Positions 10,415 to 52,046 of a DNA stretch of 64,000 nucleotides are shown piece after piece. Where the stretch lies: assembly GCF_000264995.1 (NCBI RefSeq), contig NW_006767440.1, positions 271,844 to 335,843 on the forward strand. Direction: 5' to 3'. The DNA comes from Punctularia strigosozonata HHB-11173 SS5. Taxonomy: Eukaryota > Basidiomycota > Agaricomycetes > Corticiales > Punctulariaceae. The notes beneath the pieces were generated by a model. The model made no database searches. It was not told the DNA's origin and was given only the letters and a program-made list of their open reading frames with translations. Within the stretch, counting starts at the first letter, position 1; each line of letters opens with the position of its first letter. Position numbers and translations under genes: made by a program.

Positions 10415-12712
10415 TCACATAATAACACATTCGTCCTTTGCATCCTGCCGCGTGGGGCGGTTCTGGGCGCGTCTGGCACCACCACGTTTCATCTCCGTCA
10501 ATCTAGCCATTGCACGTTTGTTGCCTTGAGCTACGGCAAGACAGCGTTAGTTCCAGAAGCAGGAAAGACGAAGATGCACTCCTACCTGCAGCACGCATGT
10601 ACCAGCGCTTGGCGAATTCGATGTCTTGTTTGATGCCGATACCTTGTTCGGCATAGTACCCTACGGCGTATTCCGCCTTTGCCAAGCCTTTGTTCGCCGC
10701 TCGTCGAGCCCAGAGATACGCTTCAGAGTCGCTCTGCTTCAAGATGCCCTCGACTCCCGTCAAATACCACCCGCTTAGTGCCAGCTCTGCCTCGGCGTTG
10801 CCCTTCTCCGCCGCCTTAGTGTACCATGCGATTGATCTTCGAGGATCCACGGGACAAGTCAGAGTGCCATATTCGTAGCACTGTCCCAGCTTGTACTGCG
10901 ACTGGGTATAACCCAACTGCCCCGCCTGCGTCAGCAACTTCTTGGCGTAGTAGGGATCATGGGGGACGAGGCCGGAATTCGGCATCTCGTGCAGCAAGGC
11001 GAGCTCATGCAACGCGTGCGGGTTCTCTTCGTCGGCCTGTTCTGCGGCTCTCCTTAGCCATCCTATCGCCTCCCGAGGATTCTTTTGTTCTCCAAGAGAT
11101 CCGTTGAGCAGTATCATTCCTAGCTTGTACATTGCAGCCGTATCGCCCAGCGATGCTGCTTTACGGTAGAACGCGATAGCGCGCGGCGGCTCTCGTCTAG
11201 TACCCGCACCGATTTCATTGCAGACCGCCACTCGATAACAGGAGGCCGGGTGATTCTGCTTGGCAGCCTGCAGGTACAGATGGTACGCTTTTTCGTGGTC
11301 GACTTGCAAACCGAGCATCCCGGTGCCGTAACAGTTGGCTAGGAAGAACTGAGCCTCGTCGTAAGGCTGCCCTTGCGTGGCCAAACGACGCATGACCTTC
11401 AATGCCTCTTGGATCAGCAGGTCGCGGTATTTCTTGACTGCTCGCTGATCCTTCGCATCAGCCCCAATGTGCTTGGCAGCATCGATCAGGTATTTGGCGT
11501 ACGCAAAATGCGCCTCGGGATCGGGATCAGCTTTTATGCGTTGACGGTACTGGTCGATGTACTCTTTGGTGTACGGAGGAGCGCTGAGATCAATCGCTTT
11601 CGACTTCTGCGTGCGCAGATTGAAAGAAGCAGTAGTCCCCGAACGCTGGAGGGGAGGTCTCGAGGCAATTTCTTCTTCCATGTAGGGGTCTGGCGGAGGG
11701 CCAGGCTGGCCAACGGGAGGCCCATAGTACTGTCCCCCGTTCACGGAGGGAGCGGAGTGGGCGGATGTCATGGAGTACACACTCGATGCATAGGAAGTGC
11801 TGCGAGCAGAGGGTGCGTAACTGGGCCCTGGGCTACCATTGTACTGGTAGCCAGGTGGCGGAGGGGGAGGAACGCCCAGAACACTGGAAGCAGCTGCAGC
11901 TACGGGATCATAAACCTCGGCATAGGGCTGATAACCAGAAGCTTGCCCTTGCCAACCCTGTTGAGGATAGCCGTTGTATTGTTGTTGCATAGGATAGGGA
12001 GGTTGGGAGTGCTGAGAGTAAGCGCTTGAGCGATCCCCTTCATAGGATGAGGGATCAGGGGAATCGTAAGCCAGCCCGTCTTGATCGCCCGCGGTATGGT
12101 ACGAGTACAACGACGCGACGTCTTGTTGTGGGGAAGCATGATTACGGGGCGGCCTGTTCTGACTCGGAGAGGATGGCAGTGAGTTATCCGGGAGCGACGT
12201 TTGGCGTGTCGGAGGCTGGACGGAATGGACAGACATGGAGGTGCCGGCTCGAGGAACGGGATCAGAGCCGTATGACGCGACGCTAGGCGTCCTCGCCGGA
12301 GGATCACTGAGATGCATCGCGCCAAACTGATCGAGCACGGCGGTAGGGTCATACTGAGGAGGCAGTGATGGGACTGCTTCCACTTGCTCCTCGCTCTGAG
12401 GCCGTTGCGAAGGAAGGGCCGGGGTGGATCGATTGGGCATTCGCATTATACTGTTACCTGGGCGCGGAACGGGACTTATGAGTGCCATGTATGGTTGAAT
12501 AGAAGAGCCTTACCAGACTGAGGATGTGGGTTCCACTGGGAGCCATCGGTTGATTCGTAGGCATGGCCGTCGGGGATGGCATTAAGGGCGGGAGACCAGC
12601 CGCCGGATGCGTCGGCTGCGAAACCGTGACGGCGCGAGCTCCGACTCTGCGCCGGTGATTGAAGCCGATCGTCGGCCGGGGGCAAAGTGTCGGTAGCTGC
12701 AACGCTGGACAT
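10415..12712 (-). CDS. SKT5: Chitin synthase III activator Skt5/Chs4, Sel1-repeat protein
   Basis: Prenylated adaptor that activates and localises a chitin synthase. Exons are 12712-12514, 12457-10586 and 10530-10415. A Ser/Pro/Gln/Tyr-rich disordered N-terminal half is followed by KAIDLSAPPYTKEYIDQY, then a run of Sel1-like repeats (for example AQFFLANCYGTGMLGLQ, YKLGMILLNGSLGEQKNPRE, YKLGQCYEYGTLTCPVDPRR, YAVGYYAEQGIGIKQDIEFA). Splicing the 55-nt intron 10531-10585 replaces a nonsense tail with QGNKRAMARLTEMKR and a terminal CVIM, a farnesylation CaaX box as in yeast Skt5. Alternative starts exist (for example 12766); 12712 (MSSVAATD) is chosen as the simpler leader. Confidence 0.92.
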
Positions 12713-35696: not shown

Positions 35697-38600
35697 TTAT
35701 TTGGCAGAAGACTGCAACATTTGATGAGACAACGGCGGACAGAGCGTCATAAAGAGACACTCACTGCGAAGCTAGACATGGTACGGCTGGAGTGGTACGA
35801 TGCAAAATTCTGCGATTGCGAGGCTCTATACGATCTCGATGAGGCGCCAAGTGTAGAGGTTTGCGGAGTGGCAGCAATCGCGCTGGAGCCTCCGCGGCTC
35901 GACCGGGCAGTGAGCGGGGTCGGTGCGCCGATCTGAGATTTCTTGGGGGTTTCCGTAGGCTTGGTGCGACTGCCCGAGCTCAGACTAGGGGAAGAAAGAA
36001 GGCTTCTGGCTGCCGACGGCGAAGGGCTGGTAAGTTTCTTTCGGCTGTTGAGGATGAAGGGGTGGCGCAGAGCTTGCTGTGGCTTCAGTCGCCGTTCGGG
36101 ATCCCATATGAGACATTTGGCAATGAAGTCGACGAAGTTCTCGTCATCGCAACGAAGAACCTGTTGGAGAGTCTTTGTACCAGGGCGACGCCGGCGACCC
36201 TTAGAGTTGATGACAGGGCGAGGGGCGCCGCTCGAGTCTGAGCAGGGTCAGAGAAACGCCAGAGAATTGCATCAAAGTCACATACCGAAGAAAAGGCGCT
36301 TCCTGCTGCTGCGGTTGATGAAGTCCTTGTCAGGCACGCCAAGGACCTCCATGATGCACGAGAGTTGCTCTTGCTCGTTCTCTCCAGGGAAGATAGGGAA
36401 GCCGGTGTATAACTCGGCCAAGATACACCCAAGACTCCACATGTCGATAGCCATGTGGTAGTTCATACCAAGAATCACCTCCGGCGAGCGGTAGAAACGA
36501 CTTTGGATGTATGTGTATACTGCGAGAGTTGATTATCAGCAATGTAATTGCGATCAAAACAGCACACGCACTCTTCTCGTGCTCGAAGCAACTGCTACCA
36601 AAGTCAATAACTTTGATGGCGCTCTTTGCTGGGTGCTTCAATAGAACATTCTGGGTGCGGCGTCAAATATATTTGGGGCGTGAGGCGAAAAGCTTGCCGT
36701 ACCTCTGGTTTCAGATCGCAGTGAACGATCCTGTGGTGCCGCATAAGGGACAGCGACATGAGCATCTGACTCGTAAACCGGCGGATCAATCCTGTCGTGA
36801 ATCCCACGAATCCATTGGCCTTGATCAGCTCGTAAAGATTGATACTGAGCAACTCCATGGCAATGCAGAGGTGGCCCCGAAAGTTAAAGTGCTCCGTCAT
36901 CTTAATGACCTGATGCTTCTCCTCCGGATCCTATGATTCAATATGAGCTCTATACCTAGCGTTATACGGACAACGATCGTAGCAAACCCACCCATTTTCT
37001 GAGGTTGTCCAAGATCTTGATCTCAACCATCGCCTGGTGATGGAACCTTTTCTTGTTTCTGATGATCTTGACCGCGACAGACTCTCCGGTGGCATGGTCT
37101 CGACAGCGTAAGACTTGCCCGAAAGAACCTTTGCCAAGAGTACCGACCACTTCGTACCGGTAAGAAAGATGATCGTGGTTGACGACGAGATAGTCTCCGC
37201 GTTCGTCGTCGTAGCCGTGGTTGTTCGTAGAGTCCTCGGTAGTGGCCGGTTTTTTCTGACTACGAGCCCCAATGAAATATACTGAGGGGTAATCCAGTAT
37301 TTCCTGTCGCTCATATTGGGACAGATACTTGACCTGACTGCTGTTGAGAACATCTGATAGGAAATTCAGGGGCAGTGTCCATATTCCGTGCGAAACGGCT
37401 TACCTTCCGGCGACACAGGCTTGACGGGTGTGGTAGGCTCCGGAAACTTCAACATGTCGTTGACTTCTTCAGGGGACGCGCCGGCGGCGAGCTTCTTCGC
37501 CTGCTGTCGTTTGATGTACTGCATCATCTCTTCGTCGCCAAGCATCTCCTCCTCATCTACCGAGCTGGGTGCAGGCGACGGCGTTGAGAGTGACTGCCTG
37601 CTCGAAGCGGCGGACGCCAGGTGTCCGGTGCTGTGCGTTGACTTCTCGAGGTCGCTGTCATGGCGGCGGGCAGCAGACAGCGAGACCTTCGGGCTAAGGA
37701 GTTTGAGCCCCTTTGAGGGCGACAGTGCAAAGGAGCGGTGCTTCGTCTCCGTGGGAGCCGCTGTTGAGAACGAAGCCACTGAGCCGGTGGAAGACTTGCG
37801 AAGGCCTGAGAAGGATATAGATTCCCTGTTAGACTTGCGCGGGACACCGCTGACGGTGGAAGAGCCCTGTGGTGCGGAGACCTGTCGGGGAACACGAGTA
37901 AGAGGCTGTGATGGCGATACTCGGACTGAAAGCCTGGTGCCAGCTGTGGGCTTCGCGGACGGGGCGGATGGCTCGTCGTTGTTAGGTTCCAAGACCCCGA
38001 ACTCATTGGTGGTCCCGCTGGGCGTGGGGGAAGGCTCGGTAGAGGCCGCCGCCATAGCACCAACATTAAGGCTCGTTCTACGGCTCGTAGCTGACGATGG
38101 GATGGTACCCTTCATCGTCGGAGACGGAATGCCGGATGTACGGCTGGAGATACGGGGTATTTTGGTCGGTGTCTCCTTCGGAAGACCAGAAGTAGAGTTG
38201 TTCAGTGCTGACGGCGGAAGCTCCCTGGGTTCCTTCTGCGGTTGCGTGTTGATGCCCACAGATGGGGATCCAGCGATGGTAGGCAGCTGATTGCGGCTGC
38301 TGCGCAACGAGGTGTCCGATTGCTTGTGCATCGAGCTGATTGTCTGAGACGTAACGCGGGAGCCGCTAGCAACCTTCGCGCTAGGTCCATTGCTAGACGA
38401 CACAGACGACTTCAGGTTAGCGACGCGCTGAGCAGTGTCCCGAGGGAGCGGCTGCACTTGCATTGGCGGGAGCGTCACCGGCTTGACCGCCTTTTTGGCA
38501 TCAGTGGCGGAAACAGTCTACGAAAGTAAGGTCAGGACTGACTGACAGAATAATAAGCATGCAGCTGTTACCTTGCCTCGCTTCCTGCCCATCAACACCG

Positions 38601-41600
38601 AGATGCGGCTTTCGCTCCTGTCCTTGTCATCCTTCTTCTTCTCCTTGTCAGACTTCTCTCGCGACTTCTCCATGCTTCGACGGTTATCCTTCTCCGGGAA
38701 GTAGTCGCTCTTATCTGAATGCAGACTCTTTCTCGAGCTGGAGCCCTTGAGCAGCGAGCCCAAGCTAAGCACAGACGACTTCTTGTGTGCCGACGCAGAG
38801 CCGGGTGTTGAAGGCGAGGAGAGCGAGTTGTCAACGAGAGGAGGAACGGCAGGCACCACGGTCAGTCGACGGGATGCCGGAGCGGTTGATGTCACCGAAG
38901 GCGAATTTGACCGTTGCGCACCAGCGGCGGGCTGGGCCTTGATTGATTGTGAGGACGATCGACGGAAGAACGGGATCGAGCTCGGTGTCAATCGTTTCGA
39001 CGTCTGCCGCCGCACAGACGATGAAGACGGGCTCAGCGGTCCCAAAGTGGTGTCCTGTACGCCGCCTTGCGTGTGGTGGCTGGCACTCGACGCGGTCTCC
39101 GTCCGGCTTGGCGCCAGCCTATCCGAGCTCTCGTTCTTCGATTGTGCGACGGGCAGCGAGACGGCGGGTGAGAGAGGACCTCTTGCACCGGAGGAACCGA
39201 TCGAGGACATGGACGCTAGCGACGCTGCCGAATCCATCGCCTGGGGCTGCGCCCAGGAGCCCCTCTTCGATGAGGCGCCGCCCGGAGACAAAGCTTCGTC
39301 CGCCGACCCAAAGCTGAACGCGCCGCCGTCCGACGTATACACCTTACCCTGCTCCGGTTGCTGCTTCTGCGCATTCGCGGCTGCCTTGGCCCTCTCCCTC
39401 TCCCTCTCCTTGGCGCTAGGGGTCTTCATTCCCAGCCCTAGCGCGTTGAAACTCCATTTTCTTGACGGAGACTTCATCACCGCTGGAGCGGAACCTACCG
39501 CGAAGTCTTGCGCAGGCTGTTGCTGTAATTGAGGCGTTGACGGCTTTTCCGGCATAGAGGTCATCATCGGCGGAACCTCCAGCAACACGGTCCTGTCCGG
39601 ATCAGCATCCTCTACTGAGGCCTGCGCCTCGGCCTGCTGCTCCTTCTCCCTCTCCCTCTCCCTCTCCCTGTCCTTCCGGATGTCTTCGGCTCCCGGCAGA
39701 CCCGGGAAGCTCATGCTGGCGGAGCTCTGCGGCGGACTCCTGAACCCGCTCAGATCCTTCGGTAGCGGTGGGACGGGAGGCACCCGCTCCCGCTCGTCCT
39801 CCACACCAACCTCTCCGCCCACACTTCCACTGCCCACACTGCCAGCGCCAACGCTCACGCTGCTCCCATATCCATGCCCGTGGGCTAGCGCAGCCGCCCG
39901 GTCCTTCAAAGACGCCACATCGGAGGAATGCACGCTCGTGTCGCTGCCGTTGCTGTTCCGCCTAACTAGCAGCTGCGCCGAATCGCGCGAGCTGCCCGTG
40001 GTGCCCGTGCCCGTCGTCGTGCCCGTGTACATCGTCGAGCTGGACGAGCCCCTCTTCGCCGCGAAGCTCGACCGCGCGCTCGCGGTGCCCGTCTTCTTCA
40101 GCGCCGACTTTTCCGGACCCGAGGACGACATTTCCTCGCCGCCCGACTCCATGTGCGGCTGCTGTTGCGAGGACACTTGCTGCTGCGCCGGAAGCTGTTC
40201 CTCGCGCGGTCGCGGCGGCATGCTCTCCCGCAGATACCCATTGCTCTTCCTCCGGTTCGCCTTACCGCCCTCCACGCCGATCCCCTCCCACTGCACGCCC
40301 GCCATCTTTCCTGGCGTCCCCGGACGACTCGAGCTGCTCGGCCTACTTCCAATAGACGTCCGCGCTCTTGCGCTCTTGCCCGATATTCCGTCCAGCTTAC
40401 GCAGCGCCTCGGCCGTAGCTTCGTCGTCGAGCGCCGACCAGCCCTCCTGCGTGCCCCGGAGCAGCGACTGACCCACGTTGGGGGAGCTATGGACGGAAGG
40501 TGGTCCAGCAATTGGGTCCTTGGAAGTAATGCTGTTGGAGTGCCGGAGGAACTGCTGGATGGACGACGTCGAGGGCGACGGCGGTAGGTGAGAAAAGTCC
40601 GAAGTCTGGCCGCGCCGGTGCGGCCGCTCGCCGTGGTTGGACGAGGACGAGCTTGCAGATCGGGCGTGCTTTGGCGGGCCGCTAGTCCTTGTGCCGCTCG
40701 AGAGGGTCAGTCCAAGGCTCTCGCGACGGCGCTCGCGAACCTTGTCTCGCGGAGAGGCCGTCGTCGTGGGCACGTTCACACTACGGTGTTTACGTAATGT
40801 GGTCTTCTCGTCGTCCTTGTCGTCGCTCCTCTCATTTTTGGGCGTGGAAAACACGGGATCGTCTTGAACGGTCGTGCCGATGTTGATAGTGGTACTGTAC
40901 CGAGCCACCCCCAAAGGGCTGCTAGACAATTCCTGTGAGGTCTTCTGTCGCAGCCTCTGCGACGTCCTGATGGAAAACGGCGATTCTCGCGATGGCTCCG
41001 TTGGCACGGCCGAACTTGACGTGCCGGTGCGTTCAGCCCTCCGCGATTGCGGGCTGAAGATATCTTCGGTGTGCGGCTTGCGAGGGTAAAGAATCTCCTC
41101 TCCACCGCTCTCGTCCGCGATAGAAGGCCGCGTGCGCAATGGCCTCGGGGGTTCAAGAGGTTCCTTCATGGAGATATGAGCGATCAAACGCTATCAATGT
41201 GATTAGAGATTACCTCGTCGGGCTTCTCCTCGGGCTCGCCGTCGATCGCCTCTATCGTCCACGGACTATCGGGGTGATCGACCTGCTCGGGCTCATTCCC
41301 GAGCTGCTGGTCCTCATCCTCCTCGCCAACGTCCTCCATCCTCTGGTGCGCCGGCTCCTCCGAATGGCTCGAGTAATGGGAGCGTGCCCAGCGCGGTGTG
41401 GCGAGCTCGCCGACGCCGACGAGACCCCTGCGATCGATGGACGCGCCGTCGCGGGCGGGAGTAATCGGCGCGCTGGGAAGGGGCGGGTCAGGCGTGACGC
41501 TCTGCGCGACGCCGAGATCGGGCATGGTCGAGATGTCCGGCATGGGTGGGAGCGGCGACTCGGCGGGCGTGTGGACGCTGAAGTAGTACGGGTCGAGGGA

Positions 41601-41922: not shown

Positions 41923-42627
41923 CGCGGCGCCACGCAGGTGACGCTAACGAGAGGAAAAGAGAGCGAGAGGAAAGAGAGGAAAACGGGAGACAATGTCGAG
42001 CGACGAGCGCTTGGCGTGTTCGTGTCGGCGGGGACGAGCACAAGGGCGGGTGTCAATGTTTGGCTGTATTTGGCAGCAGTGGCGCCGTCACGCTGGGCAG
42101 CGAGCACTGATATAACATTGAGCACTGATTCTCTGGCGGCCCCTAACTTTGTCCTGCTGCTCGTCTCCAAAGGGCACCTCTGGCCCGTGAACTCGGTCAG
42201 GCCGATCAAGTTGGTCACGTATTTACCGACGGGCGAAATGCGTGACGCCGCCGACGAGTAAGCGTCTTATCGGCCCTGCGAAAAAAATCCGCGCAATTAG
42301 GCGAGAGGGCTTATATAGCCCGACCTCTGCCGGAGTTTCGCTGAGCGCGTGCCCCTCTCTTTCACCTTCCGCCTCGGAGACCAATCCTCCAACTCAGCTC
42401 GTCCCGTTGCCCCAGCTCAGCGAGGCACGCGTCGTCCCCAAAGCACAAAGGGTTAGTTGATCGGTCCCCTTTGTTCGCTTTCGCTCACGCCGAGGATGGC
42501 GTTTCGTACAGCATCCCCAGCGCGCGTCTAGCATCCCCCTCCGGTCCGTCCGACCCCCACGTGTGCAAAAGAAGGAGCAGGCGTGCTAATTAACGCCAGC
42601 TTTCAGCCTATAACACCATCTTCTCCC
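41923..42627. promoter_or_regulatory. Divergent promoter, DYRK kinase / Zn2Cys6 factor
   Basis: 705 bp between the two starts, the longest clear divergent promoter here. A TATA box (TATATA, 42312-42317) faces the plus-strand gene, followed by a CT-rich tract at about 42340-42420. A direct repeat GAGCACTGAT occurs at about 42101 and 42119. Regulated expression of the transcription factor is plausible. Confidence 0.5.
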
Positions 42628-43752
42628 ATGACGGACGTTCGCGGCAGCCCCGATCCCGCCCCCGGTCCAGACGCCCCCGACGGCGCTCCAGCGGCCACGG
42701 ACGGCGACAACTCGAATAACAACGACGGCAGCGGCGCCAGCATGGGCACGAGTAACGGTTCCAGTGTCCCGGCCACGGGCGGCACGGGCGCTTCCTACCC
42801 CGGCATGCCCATGCACATGTACGGCTTCCCCCCGCCCATGGTCTCCACCCAGCCCCTCCGGTCGAAACGGCGCCAGGTCAAGAACGCCTGCACCAATTGT
42901 CAAAAGGCTTGCAAGAAATGTGACGACGCTCGGCCATGCCTCCGGTGCGTCAAGTACGGTATCTCCGACGACTGTGTGGACTCGCAACGCAAGGAACGGA
43001 GGAAAGGTTTGAAACGGGGCCCTTACAAGAAGAGAGATGGAAAGGGTCGGTCTTCCATCCGTGCCATGTACTCAACAACGTTAACGCCATGCACAGGGGC
43101 CTCAGCTGTTGAGCAACCCGAGGCCGCCCTTGCTCAAATGATCCCTGCCCCCATCCCTCTTCCTGCGCCGACCGGTAGCCCGCATCATCCGCACCACCCA
43201 CAGCCCGCGCCTCTGTCGTACATGACGCCCGTCGGATATCCGCCCGCCATGTTCCCTCCGATGGCACAGATGTCGCCGCCGCCACTCCTACCGCCCCCCG
43301 GATCAAGCCCTAAACCCAACGGTGGTGGAAGCCCCGAGCACCAGTCTTCGCCCGGTCATCATCAGCACGGCCAGCACCCGCACCACCAGCCACCTCCAGC
43401 AGCGGCATACTACCCGCAATTCTACATCGCGCCGCTGCCTGCGCACCCCCCTCCGGACGGCACTGACCAGGGACAAGCGCCTCACCCGGGGTACCCCCAG
43501 CAATTCTTCCCTACGTTCCTCGCGGCCCCCTACGGGCACCCGTACCCGTACATGATGCCACAGGCGCGACCCGGCGAGGGCCCGCTTCCCCTTCACGCTA
43601 TGCCGGCACCGATGGGAGGCGCCTATCCGCCGCAGCCGCCACCACCACCGGTGTATGCTACGAAGCCTTCGCCACCGGGCCCCACCGACAACAGCAGCGG
43701 CAGTGTAAGCCCTGACAGACGGGACCAGGTCAACGGGACCCGGTCGGCTTGA
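42628..43752 (+). CDS. Zn2Cys6 (GAL4-type) transcription factor with Pro-rich C terminus
   Basis: The DNA-binding domain lies at about residues 85-125: basic RSKRRQVKNA, then CTNCQKACKKCDDARPCLRC and a seventh cysteine in GISDDC. Spacing fits C-x2-C-x6-C-x5-C-x2-C-x8-C with one extra Cys inside the first loop. A basic tail RKERRKGLKRGPYKKRDGK follows. The remainder is Pro/His/Gln/Tyr-rich, activation-domain-like, with no fungal-specific middle homology region. The ATG at 42628 (MTDVRGSPDP) is chosen. A stretch 43047-43097 has GT...AG ends, is 51 nt and stays open, so it may be an optional intron. The specific regulon is unknown. This sub-family (KACKKCDDARPC with RGPYKKR) recurs across basidiomycetes. 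Confidence 0.88.
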   Translation: MTDVRGSPDPAPGPDAPDGAPAATDGDNSNNNDGSGASMGTSNGSSVPATGGTGASYPGMPMHMYGFPPPMVSTQPLRSKRRQVKNACTNCQKACKKCDDARPCLRCVKYGISDDCVDSQRKERRKGLKRGPYKKRDGKGRSSIRAMYSTTLTPCTGASAVEQPEAALAQMIPAPIPLPAPTGSPHHPHHPQPAPLSYMTPVGYPPAMFPPMAQMSPPPLLPPPGSSPKPNGGGSPEHQSSPGHHQHGQHPHHQPPPAAAYYPQFYIAPLPAHPPPDGTDQGQAPHPGYPQQFFPTFLAAPYGHPYPYMMPQARPGEGPLPLHAMPAPMGGAYPPQPPPPPVYATKPSPPGPTDNSSGSVSPDRRDQVNGTRSA

Positions 43753-47693: not shown

Positions 47694-50405
47694 TTATTGC
47701 AAGAAAGAGGGGAGGTTCGACAGGGAATTGGCGATGTGAGCCATGGTGGGCCGGTGCTGTGCGTCGGTCCAGCAGCTTTCCATCACCGCCCACCACTCGT
47801 CTGTAAGGATGTGGTCGAATTCGGCACCTTCGGGCCGCGGCGGTGACCGCTTCGCCGTGACGATCTCATAGATGACCATGGCATCACGTTTGCAATGCGA
47901 GTACGGATGCTTGAGGGTAACACATTCTAGCATTGTCATCCCAAAAGAGTAAATGTCGCTTTGATACGTCGGTGATGGTGCCGTGCCTTCGATGAGCTCT
48001 GGAGCCAACCATCGTGCTGAACCGCTGGTGGTCAGCGTGGCCGAAGCGATGGTTTCGGTGACTTCTTCGATGATCTTCGACATGCCGAAGTCGCACACAC
48101 AAGCTTCCCCCTGTGCATGGTCAGCATCGACATCACTGGTCTCATCTGTGCACATCATACTTACTTTGTCGGAAACGAGGATGTTTGACTAGAACACAGT
48201 CAACATGGCGATTCGCAGCCTTTAGAGGGGGTGAACTCACGCATTTCACTGAAAACAGCAGGGTTCAGTGAACGATAGGTAGCAAGAATTGTGGGAACTC
48301 ACTATTGCCGTGCACAACATTAGAATAGTGGAGGTACTCGAGCCCTCTCGCTGCCCCCATCATCTGTTTGGAGTGTGGTCAGACATAGAATCCAGACATC
48401 CTCGGTTTCGACATACCAGCTTCAACCTATTCGTATCGGGCGCCTTGGCAAGATACCTGTTTTATTTGTCAGACTCCGACTCCGAAGGTGAGTCTTCAAC
48501 TCACTGTAAAACGTTCCCATTCTCTGCCCAGGCTGACACCTGTAGGCGGATGGTTGGAAGACGGTGAAGCAGGTAATAGGAGACAAGACGCACAATGTGA
48601 ATATGTTGTCCAAGCTCGGTCACGAGCCCATAGAATGGCTGGATGTTCCGATGTTTGAGACGGGACCACACCTCGATCTCTCTCTGAAAGCGCTGGAAGC
48701 CGATCAGGTGGGTTTCCCGGTGAGGGCGAACCATAACGGCATACCCTCTTCGCTTTATCGTCTGCCCTGACCATACGGAGAGCTTTCAATGCAACCTAGA
48801 GAGATTTGTCAGCAACGAGCAAACCCCCGCTATGCTTGCTCACTTTTTCCTCGCTGAACCATCGTCCTATCCAAACGTCGCTGTACGCTCCTCCGGCTAC
48901 TGGGAACTGCCCTTCCCGTGTGACCTCACCGTTGAGGATCTTCACCGAAGGAGGTATGCCCTTGATGCGATGCAGATCGAGAAGGCCGCGCTGAACTCTA
49001 AGATATGTCGCAGGGTCACTCATTGGTGTAAAGGTGCCGTCTCTTGGAGGTGGCGATGACATTGTCGGCTCAGAGTTGGGTGAAGATCTAACGGTCATGT
49101 TGGGCGAAGGTGTACGAGGGAAATAGGAAGACTGAGGAGATAGAGATGCATTGTAGTATTGAGCGGCTGCGCCCTGGTATGCGGGGTTCACGTATTGCGG
49201 TTGCTGCTGGTAAGCGGTGTGCATTCCAGGTCCACCAGGATACATCGACGGAAATTGCTCCTGAGACGGAGTCTGCGAGGAGTTGTGTATGTACCCTGCT
49301 GGAGACGACATGACAATGTCATGTTGTGGCATGGGAACTACCGAATGAGAGCTGGCTGTTCGGTGGCCGAAGCCCATTTGAAGGGGCATGGAACGAGGTT
49401 GTGGTGCATGAACTTCATTCGCAGGGTTCGGAGATGGAGAGAAAGGCGATTGTCCCTCTGGAGAGTGCGTTAGTCCTCGATGCGGAGGAGTTCCAGAAAT
49501 TGGCGCGAGCTCTTGAGAACTTGGGGAGATAATGATCGGTGGGTTGATGCCACGAGAACGCATTTCTTCCAGAAACTATCACACATTGTCGATGAGATAC
49601 CTCGGAGCGTGATGAATCAACAAATTCGTACCCTTTGGCCATCTTCCATTAACCGTTGCGCATCAGGATTAGACAAATCTGCGAAGCTTTGCGGGCGAGA
49701 AAAAGCTTGGAGTAATAATTCCCTGTTTTCCGCATGATACATGTCTTGCGTCATCCTAACGTCCATAATTTGTCGGTGCATAACCAATTGGGTCTTGGCC
49801 TGGTTGGTAATGTCACCGCTGATATCAAGCCGTGAAAAGTACAGAACTTACTGAGAAGGTCTGCATCCCAACGTCGAGATCCTGCTTGTATTTCTTGAGG
49901 GTGTTCGTGATTTCATTGTATTTCACTGTGATGAATTGTAGCATCAACTGAAATCACAATCACCTTGTTCGCGGCTCACAGTAGCGCTTGTAACTTGGCA
50001 ATGCCGCAAATTCCTCCATCTTTTTATTGATTCTGTCCAGCGCCCTGGTCATCCGTCAATAAGAAACCGCCTTGCACTCGGTATGATGGCGCTTACGGTA
50101 GCAATTCGTCCATTGCAAGACGAACATCGTCATTCATGTTGTGTTCATGCTCCCGCAGCATATTCTGGTATTGTCGACAAGTATGGGCAAGGCTTGATGC
50201 ATCTTTCTGGCAGAATTGTAAGAACGCAGCTATCGCTCCACCCGAGATGTGCGTGGCTTGCCTTGTTCCCCGCGACGTGCTCGCAGCGAGCGACGATCTG
50301 CTGAAGCCCGTCCAGAGCGCTGCCTACACCGGGGATCTGTGTAATATCGGCAGCGATTTGACCTACCCCGGCGGCGAACTGTAATCCACCGCGGATTGTC
50401 GACAT
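47694..50405 (-). CDS. MLKL-like helical-bundle protein with HGN pseudokinase domain
   Basis: Exons (minus) start 50405-50262, 50206-50097, 50044-49980, 49925-49852, 49799-49632, 49575-48844, 48795-48745 and continue to 47694. Residues 1-131 form a helical bundle: a Gly-rich amphipathic start (LQFAAGVGQIAADITQIPG), CEHVAGNKKDASSLAHTCRQ, NDDVRLAMDELLPALDRINK, RYLKYNEITNTLKKYKQDLD, resembling the MLKL/HeLo four-helix fold. A second helical region (188-200) and a Pro/Ser/Gln-rich linker follow. The TKL kinase domain has AGGAYSDVWIGRW, VALK, EIEVWSRLKHRNIQPFYG, HGNMKCSNIL, CDFGMSK, ARWLAPELI and DIYSFGMTMLE. The HRD aspartate is Asn, so catalysis is doubtful. Intron 1 is GC-AG, and the catalytic loop spans 24-nt and 8-nt exons. 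An upstream ATG at 50477 is possible. Confidence 0.82.
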
Positions 50406-50652
50406 GGATGATAGCAAGGTGCGGCGGATGCCTGATCCTAGGATCGGCGCTGGGGCAGTACTGCGCACACCTTCCAAGGGCGATTCCGAGACTGCGCGGA
50501 AAGGCTGCTCTCAGCGCAACTCGGGTGACTACGAGTGTTACTGTACGAAGACGAGCAAGAGCCGCATGGATGGACAGCCCGTTCTTGGCCACAGCATATT
50601 GATGCACGCGTCGCTCCCAGGCACGTCCCTGGCTCTTGTGCTCTTCCGCGAC

Positions 50653-52046
50653 ATGTCTCGCAAACGTACTCGGGCCCAAGCATTCGCAGAAAGTGTGCTC
50701 ACGGAGGAGCTCTCTAGCCCAGCAGAACACGAGCCAATGGAGGAGACGGAGGAGCAGAAGGCGGCGAGAAGGGAGAAGGAGCTTGAAATATGGGAAGCGG
50801 TCAAAGAGGAATACTACGAGGGTACGCTCAGACCTCTGACATGCATAGTGGATGTGTCATATCTCTCAGTTGTCGATCAGCTACCTACCTCGTTGGAGCG
50901 ATACTTTCGTCTCATCCAGCAACTTGATAAACAAGTGCGCGACGGCGCAACCCACCTTAACTATCGCTCACGATGAATAGTCTGTAGAACACACTGCTGA
51001 GATTCTGCCCACCCTGCAAAGTTATGCCTCTCTCAGGCGGTCGTTGATACCACGCGCGACTTCAGACAATACGGACGATGTCATCCATGGACAAGCACTA
51101 TCAGAGGCTCAAGGCAAAACAGACGTACCTGATATATCTTCGTCTGGTGATGATGAGCAGAAGGACGCCATGCACGAGGGAGTAGAAATACCTCGGGATA
51201 CAGCCAAGGCCTCAGTTACGCCACCGCCGTCGGCCAGGACAGCCAGAGCAACGCCTTCAGTCGGATCCAACGACAGTCGAGGACTTATCTCGCACCTTGG
51301 ATATATTTTGGAAGAGAATGTGCGAGTGTCCGAGGAAAAAGTTAACCTTGCCAATGCCGCATATGAATCCGTCCGTACTTACATTCCCCCTTTCATACAA
51401 CTTGCTTACGGCCACATCTCTCCAGGTTGAAAGGCAGATCCGCTTTCTTGACCAGGCTATCAAAGAACAGGAGACGTCTCTCACTCTCGGGCTCCGTCCA
51501 GGCACCCATCCGACCTCTATTGTATTGCCGGACGTTCCAGTCGCACGAAGAGGACAAAGAGCGAACCACCCTAACATCGATTCCAACAACGTGGTCTTGG
51601 ATTCGACTAGCTTAGCTGAACGAGGACGACCGTCCAGAAAAGGCGGTCATAGGGGCAACAAGAAGTCCCGCGACACGTCACCACCCGCATCTCCGTTGAA
51701 GGTCACCATCCCCGCCGTAAATCAAACGTCAAACAATATCGATCTGGAACCTCGTTACTGCCTCTGTCATCAAGTTTCGTACGGGCAGGTGAGTTTCCTG
51801 TATAGGTCATATCATCGACCAGACGCATATGACCGCTTCTAGATGATTGGATGTGACAACCCTAGTTGTCCATATGAATGGGTAAGTGGCCCCAAAGACA
51901 TCGGTACCAAATCCTTACCCAGTGTTTAGTTCCATTACGACTGCGTCAACGTCACTGCACCCCCGAAAAACAATGCTAAGTGGTATTGTCCTGTATGTAG
52001 GGACTCCAAAAAGGGTCAAAACAAACGCTCCGGCAAATCAAGGTGA
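50653..52046 (+). CDS. ING-family PHD-finger chromatin protein
   Basis: Subunit of histone acetyltransferase or deacetylase complexes that reads H3K4me3. The ING domain is at the N terminus: RAQAFAESVLTEEL, a charged helix, then VVDQLPTSLERYFRLIQQLD after an intron, with a second part EENVRVSEEKVNLANAAYES. A disordered middle carries basic patches (RKGGHRGNKKSR). The C-terminal PHD finger YCLCHQVSYGQMIGCDN, CPYEWFHYDCVNV, KWYCPVCRD has all eight zinc ligands and the aromatic/Met positions that bind methyl-lysine, split by two introns. A basic tail ends at 52046. Which complex (NuA4-like or Rpd3-like) cannot be told from sequence. The start MSRKRTRAQ is 247 bp from the divergent pseudokinase gene. 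Confidence 0.9.

What the first reader, a model, noticed from the sequence alone, without database searches (positions are those of the whole stretch)
47694..50405. MLKL-like architecture in a fungus: N-terminal helical bundle plus HGN pseudokinase
Seen: after splicing, about 130 N-terminal residues form four predicted amphipathic helices with a Gly-rich hydrophobic first helix, then a disordered linker, then a TKL kinase domain in which VALK and DFG are kept but the HRD aspartate is Asn (HGN). Known: animal MLKL is a 4-helix bundle joined to a TKL-like pseudokinase with a degenerate HRD, and fungal HeLo/HELL domains are cell-death membrane-disrupting relatives of that bundle. Inference: this could be a fungal necroptosis-type executor or a regulator of regulated cell death or heterokaryon incompatibility.
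Basis: partly seen in the sequence, partly recalled or inferred. Interest (0 to 1): 0.88.

Follow-up and report, generated by a model that had tools for sequence, protein, structure and literature searches.

The report
Fungal MLKL-like helical bundle plus pseudokinase
A fungal gene encodes a protein built like MLKL, the animal protein that bursts cells during necroptosis: a helical bundle at the front and a kinase domain missing its catalytic aspartate at the back, a layout already noted in fungi but not tested for function here.

Summary
On the minus strand, 47694-50405 is an intact gene of 14 exons (introns 48-56 nt, one GC-AG; one 8-nt exon) for 675 residues. Residues 33-148 match Pfam MLKL_N: 25.9 bits, E 7.8e-6 for residues 1-200; 22.7 bits for the whole protein; cut-off 27. 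None of nine shuffles plus the reversed sequence matched it; the chosen splice model scored best of nine. No HeLo, HeLo-like or Goodbye profile was listed. An extra N-terminal helix precedes the bundle, as published for basidiomycete MLKL-like domains ("BaMLKL", PMC9815663). A 192-residue Pro/Ser-rich linker follows, then a TKL kinase domain with the catalytic Asp replaced by Asn (HGN) and a non-canonical Gly-rich loop; Lys, alphaC Glu and DFG are kept. Mouse MLKL and HER3 also have Asn there (PMC4718504). A 2025 review's figure legend already states that some fungal HELL domains are joined to kinase/pseudokinase domains (PMC12881547): a new member of a known kind. The cell-death role is inferred. 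No fungal relatives could be searched, so whether HGN is fixed is open; it is one base from Asp.

The parts
47694..50405 (-). whole coding region, ATG to stop, 14 exons, 675 aa
   Evidence: splice model
50262..50405 (-). exon 1, aa 1-48: extra N-terminal Gly-rich hydrophobic helix (3-22) and first bundle helix (27-46)
   Evidence: single-exon AlphaFold2 model
50207..50261 (-). intron 1, 55 nt, GC-AG (AAG|GCAAGC...TGCCAG), possible branch site CTTAC starting 16 nt before the end
   Evidence: best of nine intron-1 models by MLKL_N score
50097..50206 (-). exon 2, aa 49-84, bundle
49980..50044 (-). exon 3, aa 85-106, bundle
49852..49925 (-). exon 4, aa 107-131, bundle
49632..49799 (-). exon 5, aa 132-187: end of the last bundle helix (133-165) and a brace-like helix (176-186)
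49749..50309 (-). genomic span (with four introns) of the Pfam MLKL_N match, aa 33-148
   Evidence: span computed
48844..49575 (-). exon 6, aa 188-431: Pro/Ser/Gln-rich linker (about 195-386, 14 Ser/Thr-Pro pairs) and start of the kinase N-lobe with the loop GGAYSDV (from aa 415)
48745..48795 (-). exon 7, aa 432-448, begins with VALK (K435)
48303..48363 (-). exon 11, ends with the HGN codons CAC GGC AAT (aa 524-526) plus one base
48241..48248 (-). 8-nt exon 12, within the catalytic loop (HGN-MKC-SNIL)
47694..48110 (-). exon 14, aa 538-675 and stop: DFG, activation segment, APE and C-lobe

Best explanation
A fungal MLKL-type switch protein. An N-terminal bundle of the BaMLKL/MLKL_N class, with an extra hydrophobic Gly-rich first helix, is held inactive by a C-terminal TKL pseudokinase that may still bind ATP. 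Phosphorylation of the activation segment or linker by another kinase, or oligomerisation, would free the bundle to act on a membrane and kill or seal off the cell. Shown: gene structure, MLKL_N similarity, domain order, loss of the catalytic Asp. Inferred: ATP binding, autoinhibition, membrane action, cell death.
For: MLKL_N match spanning five exons, E 7.8e-6 for residues 1-200, listed for 0 of 10 controls, best for the chosen splice model, 26.8 bits for the trimmed query 27-147. Helix order with an extra N-terminal helix before the profile starts, as described for BaMLKL (PMC9815663 section 12). Long helix 133-165 plus a brace-like helix. Kinase domain E 1.2e-42. HGN in place of HRD, with K435, E453, K528, N531 and D544 kept. 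Same domain order in animal and plant MLKLs, which serve cell death and immunity (passages of PMC10951266); fungal HELL-kinase/pseudokinase proteins noted (PMC12881547 Fig. 6 legend).
Against: MLKL_N score is under Pfam's cut-off in every query tried (22.7, 25.9, 26.8 against 27). phmmer lists no MLKL structure with the N-terminus. The kinase domain's best solved relatives are CTR1/RAF. The 192-residue linker would weaken a direct mechanical relay. No NLR, second kinase or second MLKL_N domain was recognised in the 20 of 57 long ORFs scanned, and tblastn of the protein on the window gave no other match better than E 0.78. The catalytic Asp is one base away (AAT versus GAT).
Confidence: 0.45

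Rival explanations
1. A signalling kinase or scaffold of the TKL type, a group expanded in at least some mushroom-forming fungi. The helical bundle is an oligomerisation or docking module, the SP/TP-rich linker is a target of proline-directed kinases, and the protein serves development or stress signalling, not killing.
For: Lys, alphaC Glu, catalytic-loop Lys and Asn, DFG and APE kept; closest solved kinases are CTR1/RAF signalling kinases; 14 of 16 Ser/Thr-Pro pairs lie in the linker; TKL expansion in Laccaria (passages of PMC2838846) and expansion of the related FslK kinases in Agaricomycetes (PMC3937382; this kinase was not assigned to FslK); the Pfam-matched neighbours scanned look like housekeeping genes. 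HER3 with Asn at this position binds ATP and autophosphorylates weakly.
Against: The MLKL/HeLo bundle superfamily is associated with membrane-acting cell-death proteins in animals, plants and fungi; the first helix is hydrophobic with net charge zero. The authors of PMC9815663 themselves leave the function of the extended bundles open.
Confidence: 0.35
2. HGN is an assembly error or a private variant, and orthologues have an active HGD kinase.
For: Asn (AAT) is one transition from Asp (GAT); most other motifs intact; no relatives could be examined.
Against: The codon lies inside an open exon in an otherwise intact gene; the Gly-rich loop is also non-canonical.
Confidence: 0.15
3. The N-terminal helices are an unrelated bundle and the MLKL_N match is fortuitous.
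For: Scores of 22.7-26.8 bits, below the cut-off of 27; no PDB match.
Against: E 7.8e-6 over 116 residues in order, listed for 0 of 10 controls, score highest for the splice model chosen before scoring, and followed by a kinase domain as in MLKL.
Confidence: 0.08

Closest known systems
Basidiomycete MLKL-like domains (BaMLKL) of fungal NLRs, Wojciechowski et al. 2022, PMC9815663
   Same: MLKL_NTD-type bundle with one additional N-terminal helix; basidiomycete setting (inferred here)
   Different: joined here to a TKL pseudokinase, not to an NLR nucleotide-binding domain
Fungal HELL proteins with kinase/pseudokinase domains, Fig. 6 legend of PMC12881547
   Same: stated architecture: HELL domain plus kinase or pseudokinase, reminiscent of MLKL
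   Different: the legend names no sequence or species; this protein matches MLKL_N and no HeLo/HELL Pfam profile was listed
Animal MLKL (necroptosis executor)
   Same: bundle, brace-like helices, then a kinase-like domain lacking the catalytic Asp; mouse MLKL has Asn at that position, human MLKL has HGK; non-canonical Gly-rich loop in both (PMC4718504)
   Different: DFG and the Mg-binding Asn kept here; extra first helix; 192-residue linker; kinase half closest to CTR1/RAF among the hits shown
Plant MLKLs and wheat Pm13 (MLKL_NTD plus kinase), PMC10951266
   Same: MLKL_NTD, brace, kinase order; role in immunity
   Different: Pm13 kinase is reported to keep all key catalytic residues; plant lineage
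HER3 pseudokinase (PMC4718504)
   Same: Asn replaces the catalytic Asp with Lys, Asn and DFG Asp kept
   Different: HER3 lacks the alphaC Glu, which is present here; unrelated regulatory parts
MLKL-family (TCDB 1.A.105) homologues with Sel1 repeats in Glomeromycotina, PMC8778642
   Same: MLKL-related hits in fungi
   Different: described with Sel1 repeats, no kinase domain mentioned in the passages seen

Membership tests
MLKL_N / MLKL_NTD domain (PF22215) | profile match above the curated cut-off | tested here: not met
   22.7 bits whole protein, 25.9 for 1-200, 26.8 for 27-147, cut-off 27; E 7.8e-5, 7.8e-6, 4.1e-6. Controls: 0 of 10. A near miss, so 'MLKL_N-related' is claimed, not formal Pfam membership
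MLKL_N / MLKL_NTD domain (PF22215) | four-helix bundle fold | tested here: inconclusive
MLKL-type protein | bundle, brace, then kinase-like domain in one chain | tested here: met
   order by sequence and fragment models; bundle fold itself not shown
MLKL-type protein | pseudokinase: catalytic Asp absent | tested here: met
   HGN 524-526; aligned to HRD of the CTR1 chain 3ppz; the top hit 3p86, another CTR1 chain, itself reads HRN, an engineered mutant as I recall
MLKL-type protein | degenerate Gly-rich loop | tested here: met
   AGGAYSDV; aligned to CTR1, one of the three canonical Gly positions keeps Gly, the others are Ala and Ser. Such loops may be usual in fungal TKLs (recalled, not tested)
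MLKL-type protein | degenerate DFG | tested here: not met
   DFG 544-546 intact. The claim is therefore 'MLKL-like architecture', not MLKL orthologue
MLKL-type protein | membrane permeabilisation and cell death after phosphorylation | not testable with these tools
   needs bench work
HeLo / HeLo-like (HELL) / Goodbye domains | match to their Pfam profiles | tested here: not met
   none listed at E up to 10, with HMMER filters on
BaMLKL | additional helix before bundle helix 1 | tested here: met
   helix 3-22 precedes helix 27-46; profile position 1 falls near residue 27
BaMLKL | attached to an NLR nucleotide-binding domain, or standing alone | tested here: not met
   attached to a kinase domain
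RHIM amyloid-signalling proteins | RHIM-type motif | tested here: not met
   0 matches to the recalled strict motif or its 4-residue core; one loose 4-residue match at 252, which 202 of 10000 shuffled linkers also show. Fungal HRAM and PP profiles not tested

The most novel reading that the evidence does not exclude
Basidiomycetes keep a true MLKL-type executor, inherited from the common ancestor with animals, in which an HGN pseudokinase gates a BaMLKL bundle through a phosphorylatable linker, giving a kinase-controlled necroptosis-like pathway without NLRs or amyloids.
Probability: 0.13. Interest if true: 0.8.

Novelty: new member of a known kind. Interest (0 to 1): 0.45.

Why it matters
The fungal death executors described in the papers seen are mostly HeLo/HELL proteins triggered by NLRs or amyloids, and gasdermins. 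A fungal protein with the whole MLKL layout would allow a direct test of whether phosphorylation-gated killing is shared by animals, plants and fungi or arose several times by fusing the same two modules. The kinase half looking like CTR1/RAF in the hits shown leans towards independent fusion, but no tree was built.

Tried and rejected
Whole genome of the window: none held. Relatives of exon 14 and exon 1 in viral contigs and of exon 14 in bacterial and archaeal genomes: none confirmed (0 of 2, 0 of 29 and 0 of 18 pattern matches). A family survey and the test of whether HGN is fixed were therefore not possible. PDB by sequence with residues 1-200 and 27-147: three chance-level hits each. NCBIfam (E up to 10) and PADLOC (E up to 1): no hits. 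Paralogues within the window: nothing else better than E 0.78. RHIM motif: not found. Fold search was not run, because the fragment models are only one or two helices. Papers: nine searches, all of open-access papers; the founding HELL paper (PMC4790977) is not held. What I saw: PMC12881547 sections 18 and 20 and passages; PMC9815663 section 12 and passages; PMC3937382 outline with abstract, passages and section 4 part 1 of 2; PMC4718504 sections 11 and 19 and passages; passages of PMC10951266, PMC2838846, PMC10197012, PMC8778642, PMC7889193, PMC9119436 and PMC12258605; the rest as search listings. Considered unlikely: that the N-terminus is disordered or depends on a wrong first intron.

Full report
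Gene. The feature is a minus-strand gene at 47694-50405. Reading and splicing by eye, then by script, give 14 exons and 13 introns of 48-56 nt, 12 GT-AG and one GC-AG, and an open frame of 675 codons. Intron size and density fit a filamentous basidiomycete; this is inference, no taxon is known. The ATG at 50405 is the first in its frame after an upstream stop. A divergent plus-strand gene carries a PHD finger (27.1 bits, cut-off 24; ING-like by my reading). One candidate start of it is at 50653, leaving 247 bp between the two genes, but its open frame has earlier ATGs back to about 50404, so its true start, and the room for a further 5' exon of our gene, are not settled.

Splice check. The first intron is the least certain. 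Fifty open solutions of 40-129 nt, the chosen one included, were enumerated. Eight of the 49 alternatives and the chosen model were scored against Pfam: MLKL_N was the top family for all nine, with 25.9 bits for the chosen model and 18.4-24.4 for the other eight. The chosen intron was picked before this scoring, but by eye and partly from a recalled pattern of the family, so the check is not fully independent. A branch-site-like CTNAY is found in 8 of 13 introns.

N-terminal domain. Residues 33-148 match MLKL_N (PF22215): E 7.8e-5, 22.7 bits in the whole protein; E 7.8e-6, 25.9 bits for residues 1-200; E 4.1e-6, 26.8 bits for the trimmed query 27-147. Pfam's cut-off is 27, so formally all are below threshold. 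Nine shuffles and the reversed sequence gave no MLKL_N match. [quoted passage not shown] Sequence search of the PDB listed no MLKL.

Helices. Exon 1 alone is modelled as helix 3-22, a break holding Pro-Gly, and helix 27-46 (mean pLDDT 78, one sequence). The Pfam profile would start near residue 27, so helix 3-22 is extra. Wojciechowski et al. describe an added N-terminal helix in basidiomycete MLKL_NTD homologues and Goodbye-likes, absent from MLKL and HeLo-like domains (PMC9815663 section 12). Exon 5 alone gives helices 133-165 and 176-186 (mean pLDDT 80), comparable to the end of the bundle and a brace. These are fragment models and show helix tendency only.

Linker. Residues 195-386 are 17.7% Pro and 15.1% Ser with 8.9% charged residues and hold 14 of the 16 Ser/Thr-Pro pairs of the protein. 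No RHIM motif was found.

Kinase domain. PK_Tyr_Ser-Thr E 1.2e-42. The best solved relatives are CTR1 (E 2.8e-27) and RAF. Kept: K435, E453 (aligned to the alphaC Glu of CTR1), K528, N531, DFG 544-546, APE 573-575. Changed: the catalytic Asp is N526, and the Gly-rich loop AGGAYSDV keeps one of the three canonical Gly positions when aligned to CTR1. The Gly before N526 makes it a non-RD type. PMC4718504 reports Asn at the same place in mouse MLKL and in HER3, HGK in human MLKL, and non-canonical Gly-rich loops in MLKL; HER3 binds ATP tightly and autophosphorylates weakly, while MLKL binds ATP only without cations, in line with its altered cation-binding residues. With N531 and DFG kept, Mg-ATP binding of the HER3 kind is plausible here, but the loop makes this less sure; that is inference.

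Neighbourhood. Of 57 stop-to-stop ORFs of at least 170 codons, 20 were scanned against Pfam at E up to 0.001 and 10 of these 20 had a match: phosphoglycerate kinase, galactose-1-phosphate uridylyltransferase, SDA1, an AAA ATPase, DEAD and Helicase_C domains, Gpi1, Sel1 repeats and a sub-threshold Zn2-Cys6 cluster; none was an NLR domain, another protein kinase or another MLKL_N domain. tblastn of the protein on the window gave its own exons and otherwise nothing better than E 0.78. The other 37 ORFs and small multi-exon genes could hide a partner.

What is known. BaMLKL domains were counted in about 600 basidiomycete NLR sequences, and hundreds of stand-alone homologues were noted (passages of PMC9815663). 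The Fig. [quoted passage not shown] Wheat Pm13 shows MLKL_NTD plus a predicted active kinase in immunity. MLKL-family homologues with Sel1 repeats are reported from Glomeromycotina. So the architecture is not new in fungi; in nine searches of open-access papers I saw no named basidiomycete example with this set of features, and subscription papers were not searched.

Verdict.

Noticed in passing
48241-48248: An 8-nt exon codes for part of the catalytic loop between HGN and SNIL, flanked by introns of 54 and 52 nt.
   Followed up: partly
50362-52000 (+): Divergent gene with a PHD finger, ING-like by eye; its open frame with ATGs from about 50404 reaches the start of the MLKL-like gene, and a candidate start at 50653 would leave 247 bp between them.
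   Followed up: partly
10506-12509 (-): Long ORF with Sel1 repeats (171 bits), perhaps a chitin synthase activator of the Skt5 type (name recalled).
   Followed up: no
38521-41190 (-): 890-codon open frame with no Pfam match at E up to 0.001.
   Followed up: no
42532-43749 (+): Weak match to the fungal Zn2-Cys6 cluster (20.1 bits, cut-off 21).
   Followed up: no
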